Source: Candidatus Latescibacterota bacterium | GTDB lineage: Bacteria > Latescibacterota > UBA2968 | NCBI GenBank assembly: GCA_022823725.1 | Contig: JAJEHL010000016.1 | Span: forward strand, 1-64,000 | Direction: 5' to 3' | Length of the DNA: 64,000 nucleotides | Shown here: positions 2-4,342 of the stretch, piece by piece | How the letters are laid out: each line of letters opens with the position of its first letter | Position numbering within the stretch: the first letter of the stretch is position 1 | Translations under genes and position numbers: made by a program | Notes under the pieces: model-generated | The model's database searches: none | What the model saw: only the letters and a program-made list of their open reading frames with translations | Told to the model about the DNA's origin: nothing

Positions 2-649
2 GCGGGCTGGGGGCCACACGTTTCCGCCAAGCTCGCATGGATCATCATGGAGCTGCCGGCGCCGGCGCTCTTCCTCGTCGTCTATCTCAACGGCGAGGGC
101 GCGTTCCAGGTCGTGCCGCTGCTGTTCCTGGTCATGTGGCAGGGCCACTATCTGAACCGGACGTTCGTCTACCCGTTTCGCGTCCGGGCACGCGGCCGGA
201 AGACGCCCCTGCTGCTGGTCGCGTCCGGCTTTTTCTTCAATGTGATCAACGCGTACATCAACGCCCGCTTCATTTCGGAATTCGGCGCGTACGCCACTGA
301 ATGGCTCGCCGACCCCCGCTTCCTGATCGGCGTTGGGATTTTCCTGGCCGGTTTTGCGCTCAATCTCCACGCTGACAACACCCTCATGCGCCTGCGGCGG
401 CCCGGCGAGACCGGCTATGCGATACCGCAGGGCGGCGGGTTCCGGTTCGTCTCCTGCCCGAACTACCTCGGGGAAATCCTCGAATGGTTGGGCTGGGCGG
501 TCGCGACCTGGTCGTCGTGCGGCCTTGCATTCATGCTGTTCACCGTCGCAAATCTTGCTCCGAGGGCGAGGAGCAACCATCGATGGTATCTCGAAACGTT
601 CAGCGATTATCCGGCGCACCGCCGGGCCCTGATACCGGGCATCTACTGA
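2..649 (+). CDS. Steroid 5-alpha-reductase family protein, C-terminal part (5' end outside window)
   Basis: The reading frame is open from the left edge, so the N-terminus (perhaps 40 residues of a family length near 255) is missing; an internal ATG at 47 is not the true start. The 215 visible residues are hydrophobic with several membrane spans. The C-terminus carries the family signature: YAIPQGGGFRFVSCPNYLGE, then EWLGWAVATWS, NLAPRARSNHRWY and a final YPAHRRALIPGIY. Known members reduce the delta-4 double bond of 3-oxo steroids or related enoyl lipids with NADPH in the membrane. The actual substrate here is unknown. It converges on a Rieske oxygenase gene with overlapping stop codons, which hints at a shared sterol-like substrate. 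Confidence 0.9.
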   Translation, partial: AGWGPHVSAKLAWIIMELPAPALFLVVYLNGEGAFQVVPLLFLVMWQGHYLNRTFVYPFRVRARGRKTPLLLVASGFFFNVINAYINARFISEFGAYATEWLADPRFLIGVGIFLAGFALNLHADNTLMRLRRPGETGYAIPQGGGFRFVSCPNYLGEILEWLGWAVATWSSCGLAFMLFTVANLAPRARSNHRWYLETFSDYPAHRRALIPGIY

Positions 650-1725
650 GATCTGAGCGATCGCGGCAGATCCGGATAGAACTGCCGACAATAGCGGCGG
701 TATTGCCCTATGGGGCCGTCGGCGCGGCACAATCTGGGGATAGGCCGATACTGTTTCCGTTCCCAGATCACCACATCTTGCAGGACATCCCGTTTCTGTT
801 GTGACATTATAATGCGATTCATCAGTCTGTGGCGCAGCTTCATCGGCAGAAATCCCAGGCCTGAGATGAATCGCCGGGGCTTGCGGATTTCCCGAACATG
901 GCTGACCAATACAAGATCGATGAGGATGCCATCAATGGGTGTTGCGAGTACCCACAATCTCGCATTCATATCAATGGTTTTCTCGTGGATTTCAACGAAA
1001 GAGTAGCCCAGTCCATAGACGTGAGTGACAGCGGAGGGTTCGTACACGAGATCTTTTACACCCAAGATCTTGCGAACGCGTTTGAAGTCGAAGCAACTCT
1101 TCAAATAGGTGCCATCTACCGTTACCGAACCGACCGGTTGCACTTTGTCGTAACCGTGTACGTAGCGCAGGTGTCCCAGATCCACAGAGTTCTCGGTTGT
1201 TTCCTGGGGATGTCCACGGAACCGGAGTATGTTGAACCCCAGTTCACACCACTCTTGTCCAGTGGTTGGCTCGGTTGGCAGCTCCCACTGCGGCGGCCGG
1301 CCGCCGTTCCCGAACCAGGCGAAGATCATGCCGAGGATCTCTCGCGTCTCATATACTTTCAGCCTCGCGGCTCTCGGTGCCGGAGCATTCGGAGTCGCAA
1401 CGCATTGGCCGGTCGTATCGTACTCAAATCCATGAAACGGACAGACGAGGCGTCCGTTGCATATCTGGCCGCCGACCTCTGGCCCCAGGTGTGACCCCAG
1501 GTGAGGGCATACCGCGTCGGCCACGCAGATGCTGCCTACCTTGTCGCACCACGCGACGATTTCCACGCCCAGCCATGTCTTCTCGATCAGTTTCTCTCGC
1601 AGAATGGACTCGCGGCTTGCGACGAAATACCACCCCTCGGGAAACGGTGGTAACGCACCCGCGTCATTCATGGCCGGTTGATCAGTACTTCTGGCTCGTA
1701 AATCCGCAGATTCTGTCAAAGACAT
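643..1725 (-). CDS. Rieske [2Fe-2S] non-heme iron oxygenase, cholesterol 7-desaturase / KshA-like
   Basis: This 360-residue protein has a Rieske domain at about residues 30-140 with CPH (C73, H75) and CPFH (C95, H98) as cluster ligands. The catalytic iron site is ENSVDLGHLRYVH (N179, D182, H185, H190), and a later QDVVIWE supplies the probable acidic ligand. The single-subunit layout and the xDxxIWE ending resemble Neverland/DAF-36 cholesterol 7-desaturases and 3-ketosteroid 9-alpha-hydroxylase KshA. These enzymes need a separate reductase, which is not seen nearby. An AAGGATGAG ribosome site precedes the ATG. Its 3' end overlaps the 5-alpha-reductase-like gene by 7 bp. The Rieske class is certain; the sterol substrate is inferred. 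Confidence 0.9.
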   Translation of the reverse strand: MSLTESADLRARSTDQPAMNDAGALPPFPEGWYFVASRESILREKLIEKTWLGVEIVAWCDKVGSICVADAVCPHLGSHLGPEVGGQICNGRLVCPFHGFEYDTTGQCVATPNAPAPRAARLKVYETREILGMIFAWFGNGGRPPQWELPTEPTTGQEWCELGFNILRFRGHPQETTENSVDLGHLRYVHGYDKVQPVGSVTVDGTYLKSCFDFKRVRKILGVKDLVYEPSAVTHVYGLGYSFVEIHEKTIDMNARLWVLATPIDGILIDLVLVSHVREIRKPRRFISGLGFLPMKLRHRLMNRIIMSQQKRDVLQDVVIWERKQYRPIPRLCRADGPIGQYRRYCRQFYPDLPRSLRSQ

Positions 1726-1839
1726 AAAGGTCTCATCCTTAGAAGTTTTCCAAAGGCACCCTGAACAGCACCGTTTTCACGATATATTCCCATACAAAAT
1801 CTATAAGCTATTCACGGCAGGTGGGCAAGGTGAAAGATT

Positions 1840-4191
1840 TTATATTCCAAATCCCCCGCGTCGGTGTTCAAACTTTATTTGTGGGATGTCCTTAATATTG
1901 ATCTTAAAAAAGAACCCCTTATTAAAACCCGCGGGATACCACGAAAACCGAGCTTCCCAACAGTGGAGATCGCGGTAAAGCGATAGACTTTGCGCCGAGA
2001 TTTTGGCATCGGGTAGAACATCGATATTGATCGAATAGTCAATTCTTATAAATTGGCGAGGATTGAGGCCAACATCTGCTTTGATCCAGGATGTTTTGCT
2101 CGTTGTATTGCCGAACCGCCGCATCGCAATATAGTGCGAAAGATTGAATCGCCACGGCTGGCTGGTGCCACCGAAATCGCTGTACAGATCGCGTTCAAAA
2201 CCAAAATCTGCACCGTATCCCCCCCTGTATCCACCGCCATACCCATCGTCATATCCGCCGTCATATCCATCGGGAAGTGCGGACTGTATAACCATATTGC
2301 CCCGTTCACCTCGACCGCCAGAAAAACGGAAATTGGAGGTAATGGTCAGGTTCTGCATGCGCGGATGCAAAAGCGACCGCTGGCCTGTGCTGTCATAGAG
2401 CGTATGGGTCATGGCAATGCGAACATCCACGCGGCGATCGGGTTTGAGAGACGCGCTGGTGCGAAGTGGACGCCATTTTTGTCTCGGCGCGTCAAAATCG
2501 TACCCCATTGACAGATTGAGAGTCGCCAGAGTAAATCGGCGCACATCGTCGTCGCGCTGGGTTTTGAGTTCAAAAGTATTGCCGATATTAAAATTTATGC
2601 TGCGTCTGGCATCGTCCCATCTGCGATTGCCTCCAAACCCCAGAGTACCTTGAAATATGCTTCCCGATTGATTGTAATTGAAATTGATTCGAGGCTGAAA
2701 ACGATGCCGAATGCCGCGCAACCGACCGATCTGCGGTTGGAAGATGCCGTACAATGTCGTACCCGAAGACAGTGCCGCGTTGTAAGACGTACGTCGGGTT
2801 GTCGAATCGGTATCGCTATATATAAACTCTTCGCCAAAATTAAAGCCCGGCGTGAGATCGAGCCAGCCCATGGGGCGGTGTTGGCTGTTGACCGTGACGC
2901 GGTTTTGAAGAGAGACGCGCTCCGTATTGGGCACTGGATCGGGGTTGCGCGCAAAATTATTCGACAAGGTGCTCGAAAAACCGTAATAAAAGGCGCGATA
3001 CCACGGTCCCGTAATAGATGTGGGTTCATTACCTCCAAATATGCGGCGTCTGTTTTGTCGAAAGCTGAGACGGGGAAAGCCCTGAAAACTATTGTTTTTT
3101 GTCCTCAGGTCGCGGTAATACGTTAGACTGCCGTCAATGCTACGCCCGGATTCTGTCCAGCGTTTGTCAAAAGAAAAACTGGACCTCAGTTGCCGATTGA
3201 GATAGCGATAGAGATTATTGCTATTGCGCCGATCAAAGTTGCTACTGGTCGAAAACTGCCCGCTCCCCCTGATATTGGTCGTGGCGTTGAGGCGTTGCTG
3301 ATGTTGCAAGTTAAAGCGCCAATTGTGAGCCGTAGCATCGCCTGAGGTATCGCGGTCGTATCCAATATCCATTGAGCCACTGAATCGATTGCGTCTGGCA
3401 TAAGCAAATCGCGATTCGAGCAAGAATCCACCACGCTCGCGCAAAGTACTCTTAACCGTGGCATCCCAGTATTCACTCGGCGCAAAATAATATCCCAAAT
3501 TGTGAACAAAAATACCATCGCGGCTGCTGCTGCCCACGCCCGGCGTGAGCAAGCCCGATTGCCGCCCGCGCTTGACTGGAAAAACAAAAAAAGGAACCCA
3601 GAAAACAGGAATCGGGCCAATGCGAAAAGTAACAGACCGCCCAATCGCTTTATCATCTTGCAAAATACGCACATTTTTGCACAAAAAATCGTAGTGTACA
3701 TGGTCGAGGTCACAGGTACTCAAAGAGAGATTCATAGCATTTAGCGCTTTTTGACCATCGAGTGCAATACGGGCACCGCGATAGTGTTTGCGCTGATGTG
3801 ACGCGCGTCCATCTCGCACCCTACCGCGTTCTGTATCCAGGTTATAGACCATGTACTCACCCGATATTTTTTCGCTGCCGCGGGTAAATTGGGGTGGTTC
3901 CACGGTTTTTGCCCCGGTGGAATCGGGCAATGCCCGTGCCGCAACGTGCCGCGTGTTTTGATCGTACGTAATATGACCGGCTTTGAGTTGTAAATCGCGA
4001 TAGCGCAAGGTGGCATTGCCGATCAATTCGACGCGCCTGGTCTGTACGTGATAAACAACCTCGTCGGCGTCAAATGTTATGGAATCGCCAGCGGCTTTTT
4101 GCGGCAAAACAGATTGGCACCACCCCGGCGTAATCGCAAGTACCAGGAACAGAACGAGCCACATGGCTTGTATTTTATTACAAGTATTCAT
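1840..4191 (-). CDS. lptD: LPS-assembly outer membrane protein LptD
   Basis: LptD forms the outer-membrane beta-barrel that inserts lipopolysaccharide. From the ATG at 4191 the product has a signal peptide ending near GWCQS. An OstA/LptA-like jellyroll follows (about residues 30-190, with phrases such as DEVVYHVQTRRVELIGNATL and LSTCD). A long barrel comes next, with many alternating aromatic strands and the family-typical VFWVPFFVFPVKRGRQSG. The length (about 783) is normal. A TTG at 4227 extends the frame by 12 residues but lacks a signal-like start, so the ATG is preferred. A Gly/Tyr/Asp-rich insert (GYDGGYDDGYGGGYRGGYG) near the C-terminus is unusual. The LptE partner is not in the window. 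Confidence 0.9.
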   Translation of the reverse strand: MNTCNKIQAMWLVLFLVLAITPGWCQSVLPQKAAGDSITFDADEVVYHVQTRRVELIGNATLRYRDLQLKAGHITYDQNTRHVAARALPDSTGAKTVEPPQFTRGSEKISGEYMVYNLDTERGRVRDGRASHQRKHYRGARIALDGQKALNAMNLSLSTCDLDHVHYDFLCKNVRILQDDKAIGRSVTFRIGPIPVFWVPFFVFPVKRGRQSGLLTPGVGSSSRDGIFVHNLGYYFAPSEYWDATVKSTLRERGGFLLESRFAYARRNRFSGSMDIGYDRDTSGDATAHNWRFNLQHQQRLNATTNIRGSGQFSTSSNFDRRNSNNLYRYLNRQLRSSFSFDKRWTESGRSIDGSLTYYRDLRTKNNSFQGFPRLSFRQNRRRIFGGNEPTSITGPWYRAFYYGFSSTLSNNFARNPDPVPNTERVSLQNRVTVNSQHRPMGWLDLTPGFNFGEEFIYSDTDSTTRRTSYNAALSSGTTLYGIFQPQIGRLRGIRHRFQPRINFNYNQSGSIFQGTLGFGGNRRWDDARRSINFNIGNTFELKTQRDDDVRRFTLATLNLSMGYDFDAPRQKWRPLRTSASLKPDRRVDVRIAMTHTLYDSTGQRSLLHPRMQNLTITSNFRFSGGRGERGNMVIQSALPDGYDGGYDDGYGGGYRGGYGADFGFERDLYSDFGGTSQPWRFNLSHYIAMRRFGNTTSKTSWIKADVGLNPRQFIRIDYSINIDVLPDAKISAQSLSLYRDLHCWEARFSWYPAGFNKGFFFKINIKDIPQIKFEHRRGGFGI

Positions 4192-4342
4192 AATTTTAAA
4201 GTGTGTTGTGGATTTTGTGGAGTACAAACGTAAATTCGAGGATTGGAAAAGTCAACAGAGGTTCTATGGTAAAATCCTCTGGATCAATGCTTTGCGTCAT
4301 GTCCTGTACAAACAAGGGAATGCCTCGGTTGTTCCGTTTTTA

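What the first reader, a model, noticed from the sequence alone, without database searches (positions are those of the whole stretch)
2..1725. Steroid 5-alpha-reductase-like gene facing a cholesterol-desaturase/KshA-like Rieske oxygenase
Both enzymes belong to families that act on sterols or steroids in other organisms, and they sit end to end in a bacterium with an LPS outer membrane. Seen: intact Rieske and mononuclear iron ligands, intact 5-alpha-reductase C-terminal signature. Inference: a bacterial sterol- or hopanoid-like modification step.
Basis: partly seen in the sequence, partly recalled or inferred. Interest (0 to 1): 0.6.

Follow-up and report, generated by a model that had tools for sequence, protein, structure and literature searches.

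The report
Sponge-symbiont sterol-tailoring gene cassette edge
The two genes are the visible end of a mobile bacterial gene cassette, found next to sterol-making genes in many kinds of sponge symbiont, that probably reshapes and exports sterols, here in a bacterium whose own genome shows no sterol-making cyclase.

Summary
Observation confirmed. [quoted passage not shown] 643-1725 (-) encodes an intact KshA-like Rieske oxygenase. Sequence and fold both put KshA first, not phthalate-type oxygenases. The pair is the edge of a larger cassette. Genus-mates supply the missing side: RND exporter, a GPP34-cytochrome P450 fusion, an SdmB/HpnA-like 3beta-HSD-type dehydrogenase, SRD5A. Relatives of this Rieske occur in MAGs labelled with nine phyla, many traceable to sponges; 48 of 55 loci with enough flank carry the GPP34-P450 fusion, 23 a sterol methyltransferase. 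In Binatia and Nitrospirales these genes lie beside a complete de novo sterol cluster. The window's genome has no such cyclase, so imported sterol is the likely substrate. SRD5A/HSD/P450 and SMT/P450 are alternative modules at one site; the former moved recently between phyla, with a breakpoint inside the fusion gene. Caveat: this SRD5A clade has Met for the essential Gln of the QEY motif, so exact chemistry is open. Sterol clusters in sponge bacteria are known; this tailoring/export cassette appears undescribed.

The parts
2..649 (+). steroid 5-alpha-reductase-family (SRD5A) gene, 5' part cut off by the contig end; catalytic E at 50-52 and Y at 149-151 kept, Q of the QEY motif replaced by M at 47-49
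643..1725 (-). complete KshA-like Rieske non-heme iron oxygenase gene, convergent with SRD5A (7-base overlap)
1802..1837 (+). right copy of a ~40-bp direct repeat that flanks the cassette on both sides in genus-mates and is single-copy at the empty site of G007; att-like or target-duplication-like boundary
1840..4227 (-). LPS-assembly gene (lptD-like, named from its sequence), the chromosomal neighbour that marks the right edge of the cassette; not part of it

Best explanation
The pair is the right-hand end of a horizontally mobile sterol-tailoring and export cassette of sponge symbionts, inserted between dtd and lptD in a Latescibacterota-type bacterium that does not make sterols itself. Proposed working: sterol taken up from the host or from neighbouring bacteria is oxidised at C3 by the SdmB/HpnA-like 3beta-HSD-type dehydrogenase; SRD5A reduces the resulting 4-ene-3-one, or a related conjugated double bond, with NADPH to a 5alpha (stanone/stanol-type) product; the GPP34-P450, probably held at the membrane by its GPP34 domain, and the Rieske oxygenase each put oxygen or a double bond into the ring system or side chain; a tripartite RND pump moves the product out. 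In sister genomes the SRD5A+HSD+P450 module is replaced by an SMT+P450 module that would alkylate C24. Shown: gene content, homology, invariant iron ligands, co-localisation with complete sterol clusters in other lineages, module swap, empty site with flanking repeats, no cyclase match in the own genome. Inferred: sterol as the substrate here, order of steps, positions oxidised, role of GPP34, direction of transport, and that G000 itself carries the upstream genes (they are not in its assembly).
For: Family assignments. KshA first by sequence and fold, TM 0.75-0.78. SRD5A closest to the functional bacterial steroid reductase PbSRD5A. Upstream genes in G002 and G004. SMT with Sterol_MT_C E 2.7e-15 in the same slot in G003, G006, G010 and beyond. 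48 of 55 well-flanked Rieske loci carry the GPP34-P450 fusion, 25 the flavin oxidase, 23 SMT. In Binatia (L167) the epoxidase-cyclase, SMT, SdmA/SdmB-like genes, flavin oxidase, GPP34-P450 and this Rieske lie within 12.5 kb; in Nitrospirales (L162/L088) a cluster with SdmA 415 bits, SdmB 303 bits, ERG24 and SE-OSC lies on the same contig as the cassette. No SHC/OSC hit in G000, 98% complete. Module swap: 97-99% DNA identity for P450-HSD-SRD5A against 79-88% upstream and 85% at the Rieske; 85% DNA identity to Acidobacteriota for the module against 70% for MFP/RND; breakpoint at the GPP34/P450 junction. Empty site and 40-bp repeats.
Against: No enzyme assay and no lipid data. The SRD5A clade has M for the QEY glutamine, and Q56A or Q56L abolished human SRD5A2 activity, so the product may not be a 5alpha-3-ketosteroid or the substrate may differ. 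The HSD-like protein scores below the curated cut-offs of both HpnA and SdmB and could be a sugar epimerase. The P450 has no specific assignment. Upstream genes are not in the G000 assembly. One genus-mate (G004) has SRD5A but a broken Rieske, so the two need not act in one pathway.
Confidence: 0.62

Rival explanations
1. Steroid catabolism: the Rieske is a 3-ketosteroid 9alpha-hydroxylase (KshA) that opens ring B for growth on host sterols, as proposed for sponge KshA homologues by Holert et al. 2018 (PMC5790920).
For: KshA is the closest solved family; Holert et al. report a KshA cluster found only in sponge MAGs.
Against: No ring-degradation gene (KstD, Hsa) was recognised next to the Rieske in the loci read; the only HsaC-type match in G000 is a 20-bit hit on a 135-aa frame (one marker only); the Rieske travels with SMT, SdmB-like dehydrogenase and exporters, a biosynthetic company.
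Confidence: 0.13
2. The cassette makes or alters another membrane lipid, for example a hopanoid or carotenoid; the sterol-like families are repurposed.
For: The 369-aa dehydrogenase scores slightly higher with HpnA (hopanoid-associated, 214 bits) than SdmB (202 bits); about half of the 50 tested cassette-bearing genomes have an SHC-sized cyclase; M in the SRD5A motif.
Against: No SHC match in G000 and none in 17 of 50 other cassette-bearing genomes (MAGs incomplete); SMT with a sterol-methyltransferase C-terminal domain; physical linkage to oxidosqualene cyclase clusters rather than to SHC.
Confidence: 0.15
3. Detoxification: oxygenases plus an RND pump disarm and expel toxic sponge or microbial terpenoids; resemblance to sterol enzymes reflects steroid-like toxins.
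For: An AcrB-type tripartite pump is part of the cassette in many diderm lineages.
Against: A C24 sterol methyltransferase and linkage to de novo sterol genes are not expected of a detoxification operon; Chloroflexota and Acidimicrobiia loci mostly lack the AcrB-type pump but keep the enzymes.
Confidence: 0.08
4. SRD5A next to the Rieske is an accident of a mis-assembled contig end.
For: Contigs break inside SRD5A in several genomes, and SRD5A differs in G+C from its surroundings.
Against: The same SRD5A-Rieske junction is at contig ends of G000, G002, G004 and G005; breaks are expected where a near-identical module is shared by co-occurring species.
Confidence: 0.03

Closest known systems
Clusters of steroid genes (CSGs) of Ircinia symbionts (Kelly et al. 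2022, PMC9531527) and the Melophlus msb cluster (PMC7074536)
   Same: Sponge bacteria of many phyla, horizontal transfer, SMT and SdmB-type dehydrogenases; in some genomes physically adjacent to the present cassette
   Different: Those are de novo synthesis clusters (ERG24, CYP51, cyclase, with SdmA-type VanA_C Rieske). The present cassette has a different, KshA_C-type Rieske (23% identical in one comparison), a GPP34-P450 fusion, a flavin oxidase, exporters, and in the window's genus no cyclase
Bacterial sterol C24-methyltransferases (Brown et al. 2023, PMC10070321)
   Same: SMT family with Sterol_MT_C domain, sponge symbionts
   Different: Main text has no mention of P450 or Rieske, so not reported there with this cassette; whether any SMT tested there belongs to this cassette was not checked
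PbSRD5A and human SRD5A1/2 (Han et al. 2021, PMC7815742)
   Same: Closest solved homologue; E and Y of the active site conserved
   Different: Q of the QEY motif is M in all six clade members aligned
KshA, 3-ketosteroid 9alpha-hydroxylase (2zyl, 4qdc)
   Same: Fold, domain architecture, iron ligands
   Different: About 21-23% identity; biosynthetic rather than catabolic gene company
Plant brassinosteroid pathway (3beta-HSD, DET2, P450s, SMT)
   Same: Same combination of enzyme classes (analogy from general knowledge, not tested)
   Different: Different P450 and dehydrogenase families likely; an analogy of logic, not homology of the pathway

Membership tests
Steroid 5-alpha-reductase (SRD5A) family | Steroid_dh C-terminal domain over the curated cut-off | tested here: met
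   PF02544 180 bits against a cut-off of 22.6
Steroid 5-alpha-reductase (SRD5A) family | QEY catalytic motif | tested here: not met
   E and Y kept, Q replaced by M in all six clade members aligned. Filed as an SRD5A-family homologue, not as a proven 5alpha-reductase
Steroid 5-alpha-reductase (SRD5A) family | NADPH-dependent reduction of 4-ene-3-oxo steroids | not testable with these tools
   needs an assay
KshA-type Rieske oxygenase | Rieske domain plus KshA_C domain over cut-offs | tested here: met
   56.5 and 81.3 bits against 20.3 and 23.3
KshA-type Rieske oxygenase | Conserved [2Fe-2S] and mononuclear iron ligands | tested here: met
   C73, H75, C95, H98, D182, H185, H190, D317 invariant in 39 homologues
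KshA-type Rieske oxygenase | Nearest solved fold is KshA | tested here: met
   top six Foldseek hits are KshA, TM 0.75-0.78, model pLDDT 81
KshA-type Rieske oxygenase | 9alpha-hydroxylation of 3-ketosteroids with a KshB reductase | not tested
   no assay; KshB was not searched for
SdmA 4beta-methylsterol monooxygenase | NCBIfam NF052579 equivalog cut-off (600 bits) | tested here: not met
   28.8 bits; the SdmA relative in sponge sterol clusters scores 415 bits and is a different protein
De novo bacterial sterol cluster (CSG/msb) | Oxidosqualene cyclase in the genome | tested here: not met
   no PF13243 hit at E 0.001 in G000; SE-OSC-sized hits in 15 of 50 other cassette-bearing genomes
9,10-seco steroid catabolism | HsaC-type extradiol dioxygenase in the genome | tested here: inconclusive
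   only a 20-bit partial match in G000; one marker only

The most novel reading that the evidence does not exclude
Sponge symbionts of many phyla share a mobile sterol-tailoring and export cassette built around a membrane-tethered GPP34-P450 and a KshA-like Rieske oxygenase, with interchangeable reductase (SRD5A/HSD) and methyltransferase (SMT) modules; bacteria that cannot make sterols use it to rewrite host or community sterols, so sponge sterol profiles, including C24-alkylated and 5alpha-reduced ones used as biomarkers, are partly written by non-sterol-making bacteria. The SRD5A branch with Met for Gln may have a changed substrate or chemistry.
Probability: 0.42. Interest if true: 0.86.

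Novelty: new variant of a known kind. Interest (0 to 1): 0.7.

Why it matters
Who makes the unusual sterols of sponges, and hence who made the oldest proposed animal biomarkers, is an open question. De novo sterol clusters and methyltransferases of sponge bacteria are known; this adds a widespread tailoring/export cassette that also sits in bacteria without a detectable cyclase, and shows it exchanging modules between phyla. It names specific, expressible genes (Rieske, GPP34-P450, SRD5A, SMT) whose activity on host sterols can be tested directly.

Tried and rejected
A simple two-gene pairing: rejected, only 2 of 55 well-flanked Rieske loci have SRD5A. Rieske as phthalate type: not favoured by sequence or fold. 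Rieske as SdmA: rejected. De novo sterol synthesis in this genome: no cyclase. A DNA search for the upstream genes in G000 found only the 303 bases already at the contig start. Literature searches for a GPP34-P450 fusion or for an SRD5A/Rieske pair in sponge symbionts found nothing relevant, within an open-access library only. The NCBI label 'Gemmatimonadota' of several loci conflicts with their grouping as the same order or class as the window in the genome tool, so phylum counts are approximate.

Full report
OBSERVATION. The window starts at base 1 of contig C31 of the own genome G000 (5.34 Mb, 98% complete). [quoted passage not shown] Window 643-1725 (-) encodes a complete 360-residue Rieske oxygenase with the KshA C-terminal domain. 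All iron ligands are invariant across 39 homologues. KshA is the nearest solved family by single sequence, by profile and by fold: the top six Foldseek hits of the AlphaFold model (pLDDT 81) are KshA chains. The reductase is about 63% G+C against about 50% around it.

THE MISSING SIDE. Contigs of several genus-mates break inside the same reductase gene. Where the other side is assembled (G004 C29, G002 C17) it reads: HlyD-type membrane-fusion protein, AcrB-type RND pump, a 675-residue fusion of a GPP34 (Golgi phosphoprotein 3) domain to a cytochrome P450, a 369-residue dehydrogenase, then SRD5A. The dehydrogenase matches 3Beta_HSD and scores 214 bits with HpnA and 202 with SdmB, below both curated cut-offs. 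These upstream genes are not in the G000 assembly itself, so their presence there is inferred from the shared junction.

A CASSETTE, NOT A PAIR. A scan of 84,980 genomes with the Rieske protein gave 80 loci at 57-96% identity, in MAGs labelled with nine phyla. Many names trace to sponge studies: jk18x bins are Ircinia symbionts by their own paper; the prefixes RHO, IRC and COS fit the sponge species of Robbins et al. (inferred from initials). Other prefixes were not traced. Among 55 loci with at least 8 kb on each side, 48 have the GPP34-P450 fusion within 9 kb, 25 a flavin amine-oxidase-type enzyme, 23 a sterol methyltransferase, 18 the RND pump, and 2 SRD5A. In the Chloroflexota and Acidimicrobiia loci the AcrB-type pump is generally not found; MMPL-family transporters, distantly like HpnN/BstA, recur in other loci of the set. 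No gene of the GPP34 family was found in 14 control genomes.

LINK TO STEROLS. In a Binatia contig (L167) an epoxidase-cyclase-sized gene, SMT, SdmA- and SdmB-like genes, the flavin oxidase, the GPP34-P450 and this Rieske (81% identical) lie within 12.5 kb; in Nitrospirales (L162/L088, one contig) the cassette is followed by SMT, SdmB (303 bits), SdmA (415 bits), ERG24, a P450 in the CYP51 position, and a squalene epoxidase-oxidosqualene cyclase fusion. The SdmA-type Rieske of those clusters is a different protein (23% identical, VanA_C domain), so the window's Rieske is a second, tailoring-type oxygenase. Of 50 cassette-bearing genomes, 15 have a cyclase hit in a frame over 1,100 residues (SE-OSC type; one confirmed by family search, the others inferred from length), and 17 have no cyclase hit of either kind (MAGs may be incomplete). 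G000 has no hit at E 0.001, nor has any genus-mate except a 26-bit partial match in G009. The cassette therefore often works without local sterol synthesis, and imported sterol is the simplest substrate.

MODULE SWAPPING AND MOBILITY. In genus-mates G003, G006 and G010 the place of SRD5A and the dehydrogenase is taken by a sterol methyltransferase (Sterol_MT_C E 2.7e-15) with a different P450. Along the fusion protein, identity between G002 and G010 falls from about 80% (GPP34) to about 50% (P450), while identity to Acidobacteriota and to L079 rises from about 50% to about 90% at the same boundary. At DNA level G002 and G004 share 79-88% in MFP, RND and GPP34 but 97-99% in P450, dehydrogenase and SRD5A; the Rieske is 85% between G000 and G002. 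The module is 85% identical in DNA to that of Bryobacterales while MFP/RND are 70%. A 3.3-kb P450-dehydrogenase-SRD5A module has thus been exchanged between species and phyla, with a breakpoint at the domain junction. The Rieske tree is mostly sorted by phylum (12 label changes, 9 the minimum), so the Rieske is the older resident.

INSERTION SITE. In complete genome G007 dtd and lptD are 101 bp apart and the cassette is absent; G008 also has no Rieske there. A ~40-bp sequence present once at the empty site occurs on both sides of the cassette in G002 and G010 and of its remnant in G009; the window's right copy is at 1802-1837. G004 has its cassette elsewhere and still carries a right copy. No integrase gene was recognised in the cassette, so whether this is site-specific integration or homologous recombination is open. 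The names dtd and lptD rest on reading the translations, not on a family search.

MECHANISM. Most likely: the dehydrogenase oxidises C3 of an imported sterol; SRD5A reduces the conjugated double bond; P450 and Rieske oxygenate or desaturate ring or side chain; the pump exports the product. This is inferred from family chemistry. The main doubt is the SRD5A active site: Q56A and Q56L abolished human SRD5A2 (Han et al.), and this clade has M there in all six members aligned, with E and Y kept. It may therefore have a different substrate or compensating contacts.

RIVALS. Steroid catabolism was proposed for sponge KshA homologues by Holert et al.; here no ring-degradation gene was recognised near the Rieske, and a single-marker search for HsaC in G000 gave only a 20-bit partial hit. 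Hopanoid or other lipid tailoring remains possible because of the HpnA-like score. Detoxification fits the pump but not the methyltransferase or the linkage to sterol synthesis.

NOVELTY. Sterol clusters and methyltransferases of sponge bacteria are published. The passages of those papers read here do not describe this Rieske/GPP34-P450/flavin-oxidase/exporter cassette or its SRD5A and SMT variants; the search covered open-access papers only and supplements were not read. Verdict: a new variant of a known kind, with good genomic evidence for a sterol role and no biochemical proof.

Noticed in passing
window 1802-1837; L037:11774, L171:1277, L169:3842 and 11753, L173:7635, L170:817: A ~40-bp direct repeat flanks the cassette and is single at the empty dtd-lptD site of G007; left copies resemble the empty site, right copies share GGCAGGTGG. 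No integrase gene was recognised with it.
   Followed up: partly
L168:11594-12819 (G009), L169:10424-11667 (G010), L170:145-747 (G004): The Rieske gene is decaying in three genus-mates (truncated, split or internally deleted), and in G009 little more than P450 and Rieske fragments is left between the repeats.
   Followed up: partly
L175:10896-12869, L176:767-2734, L177:393-2360: A second, divergent GPP34-P450 fusion (about 35-40% identical to the cassette one) in three genus-mates, next to a phytanoyl-CoA-dioxygenase-like gene in L175 and L176 (named from sequence look only), outside the cassette; a free-standing GPP34 gene is present in every member of the genus searched.
   Followed up: partly
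L111:15341-17722, L128:5525-6358: MMPL-family transporters (HAE3/HpnN/BstA-like; one with a faint Sterol-sensing domain match, E 1.5e-4) recur beside the Rieske in other lineages.
   Followed up: partly
L041:16983-18329, L045:8976-10334, L047:13119-14402: An iron-containing alcohol dehydrogenase directly abuts the Rieske in the sister family; role unknown.
   Followed up: no
L164:8443-9870, L167:12412-13848: A flavin amine-oxidase-family enzyme (best solved relative LkcE) sits next to the sterol cyclase cluster and is 77% or more identical in most loci across phyla; its reaction is unknown.
   Followed up: partly
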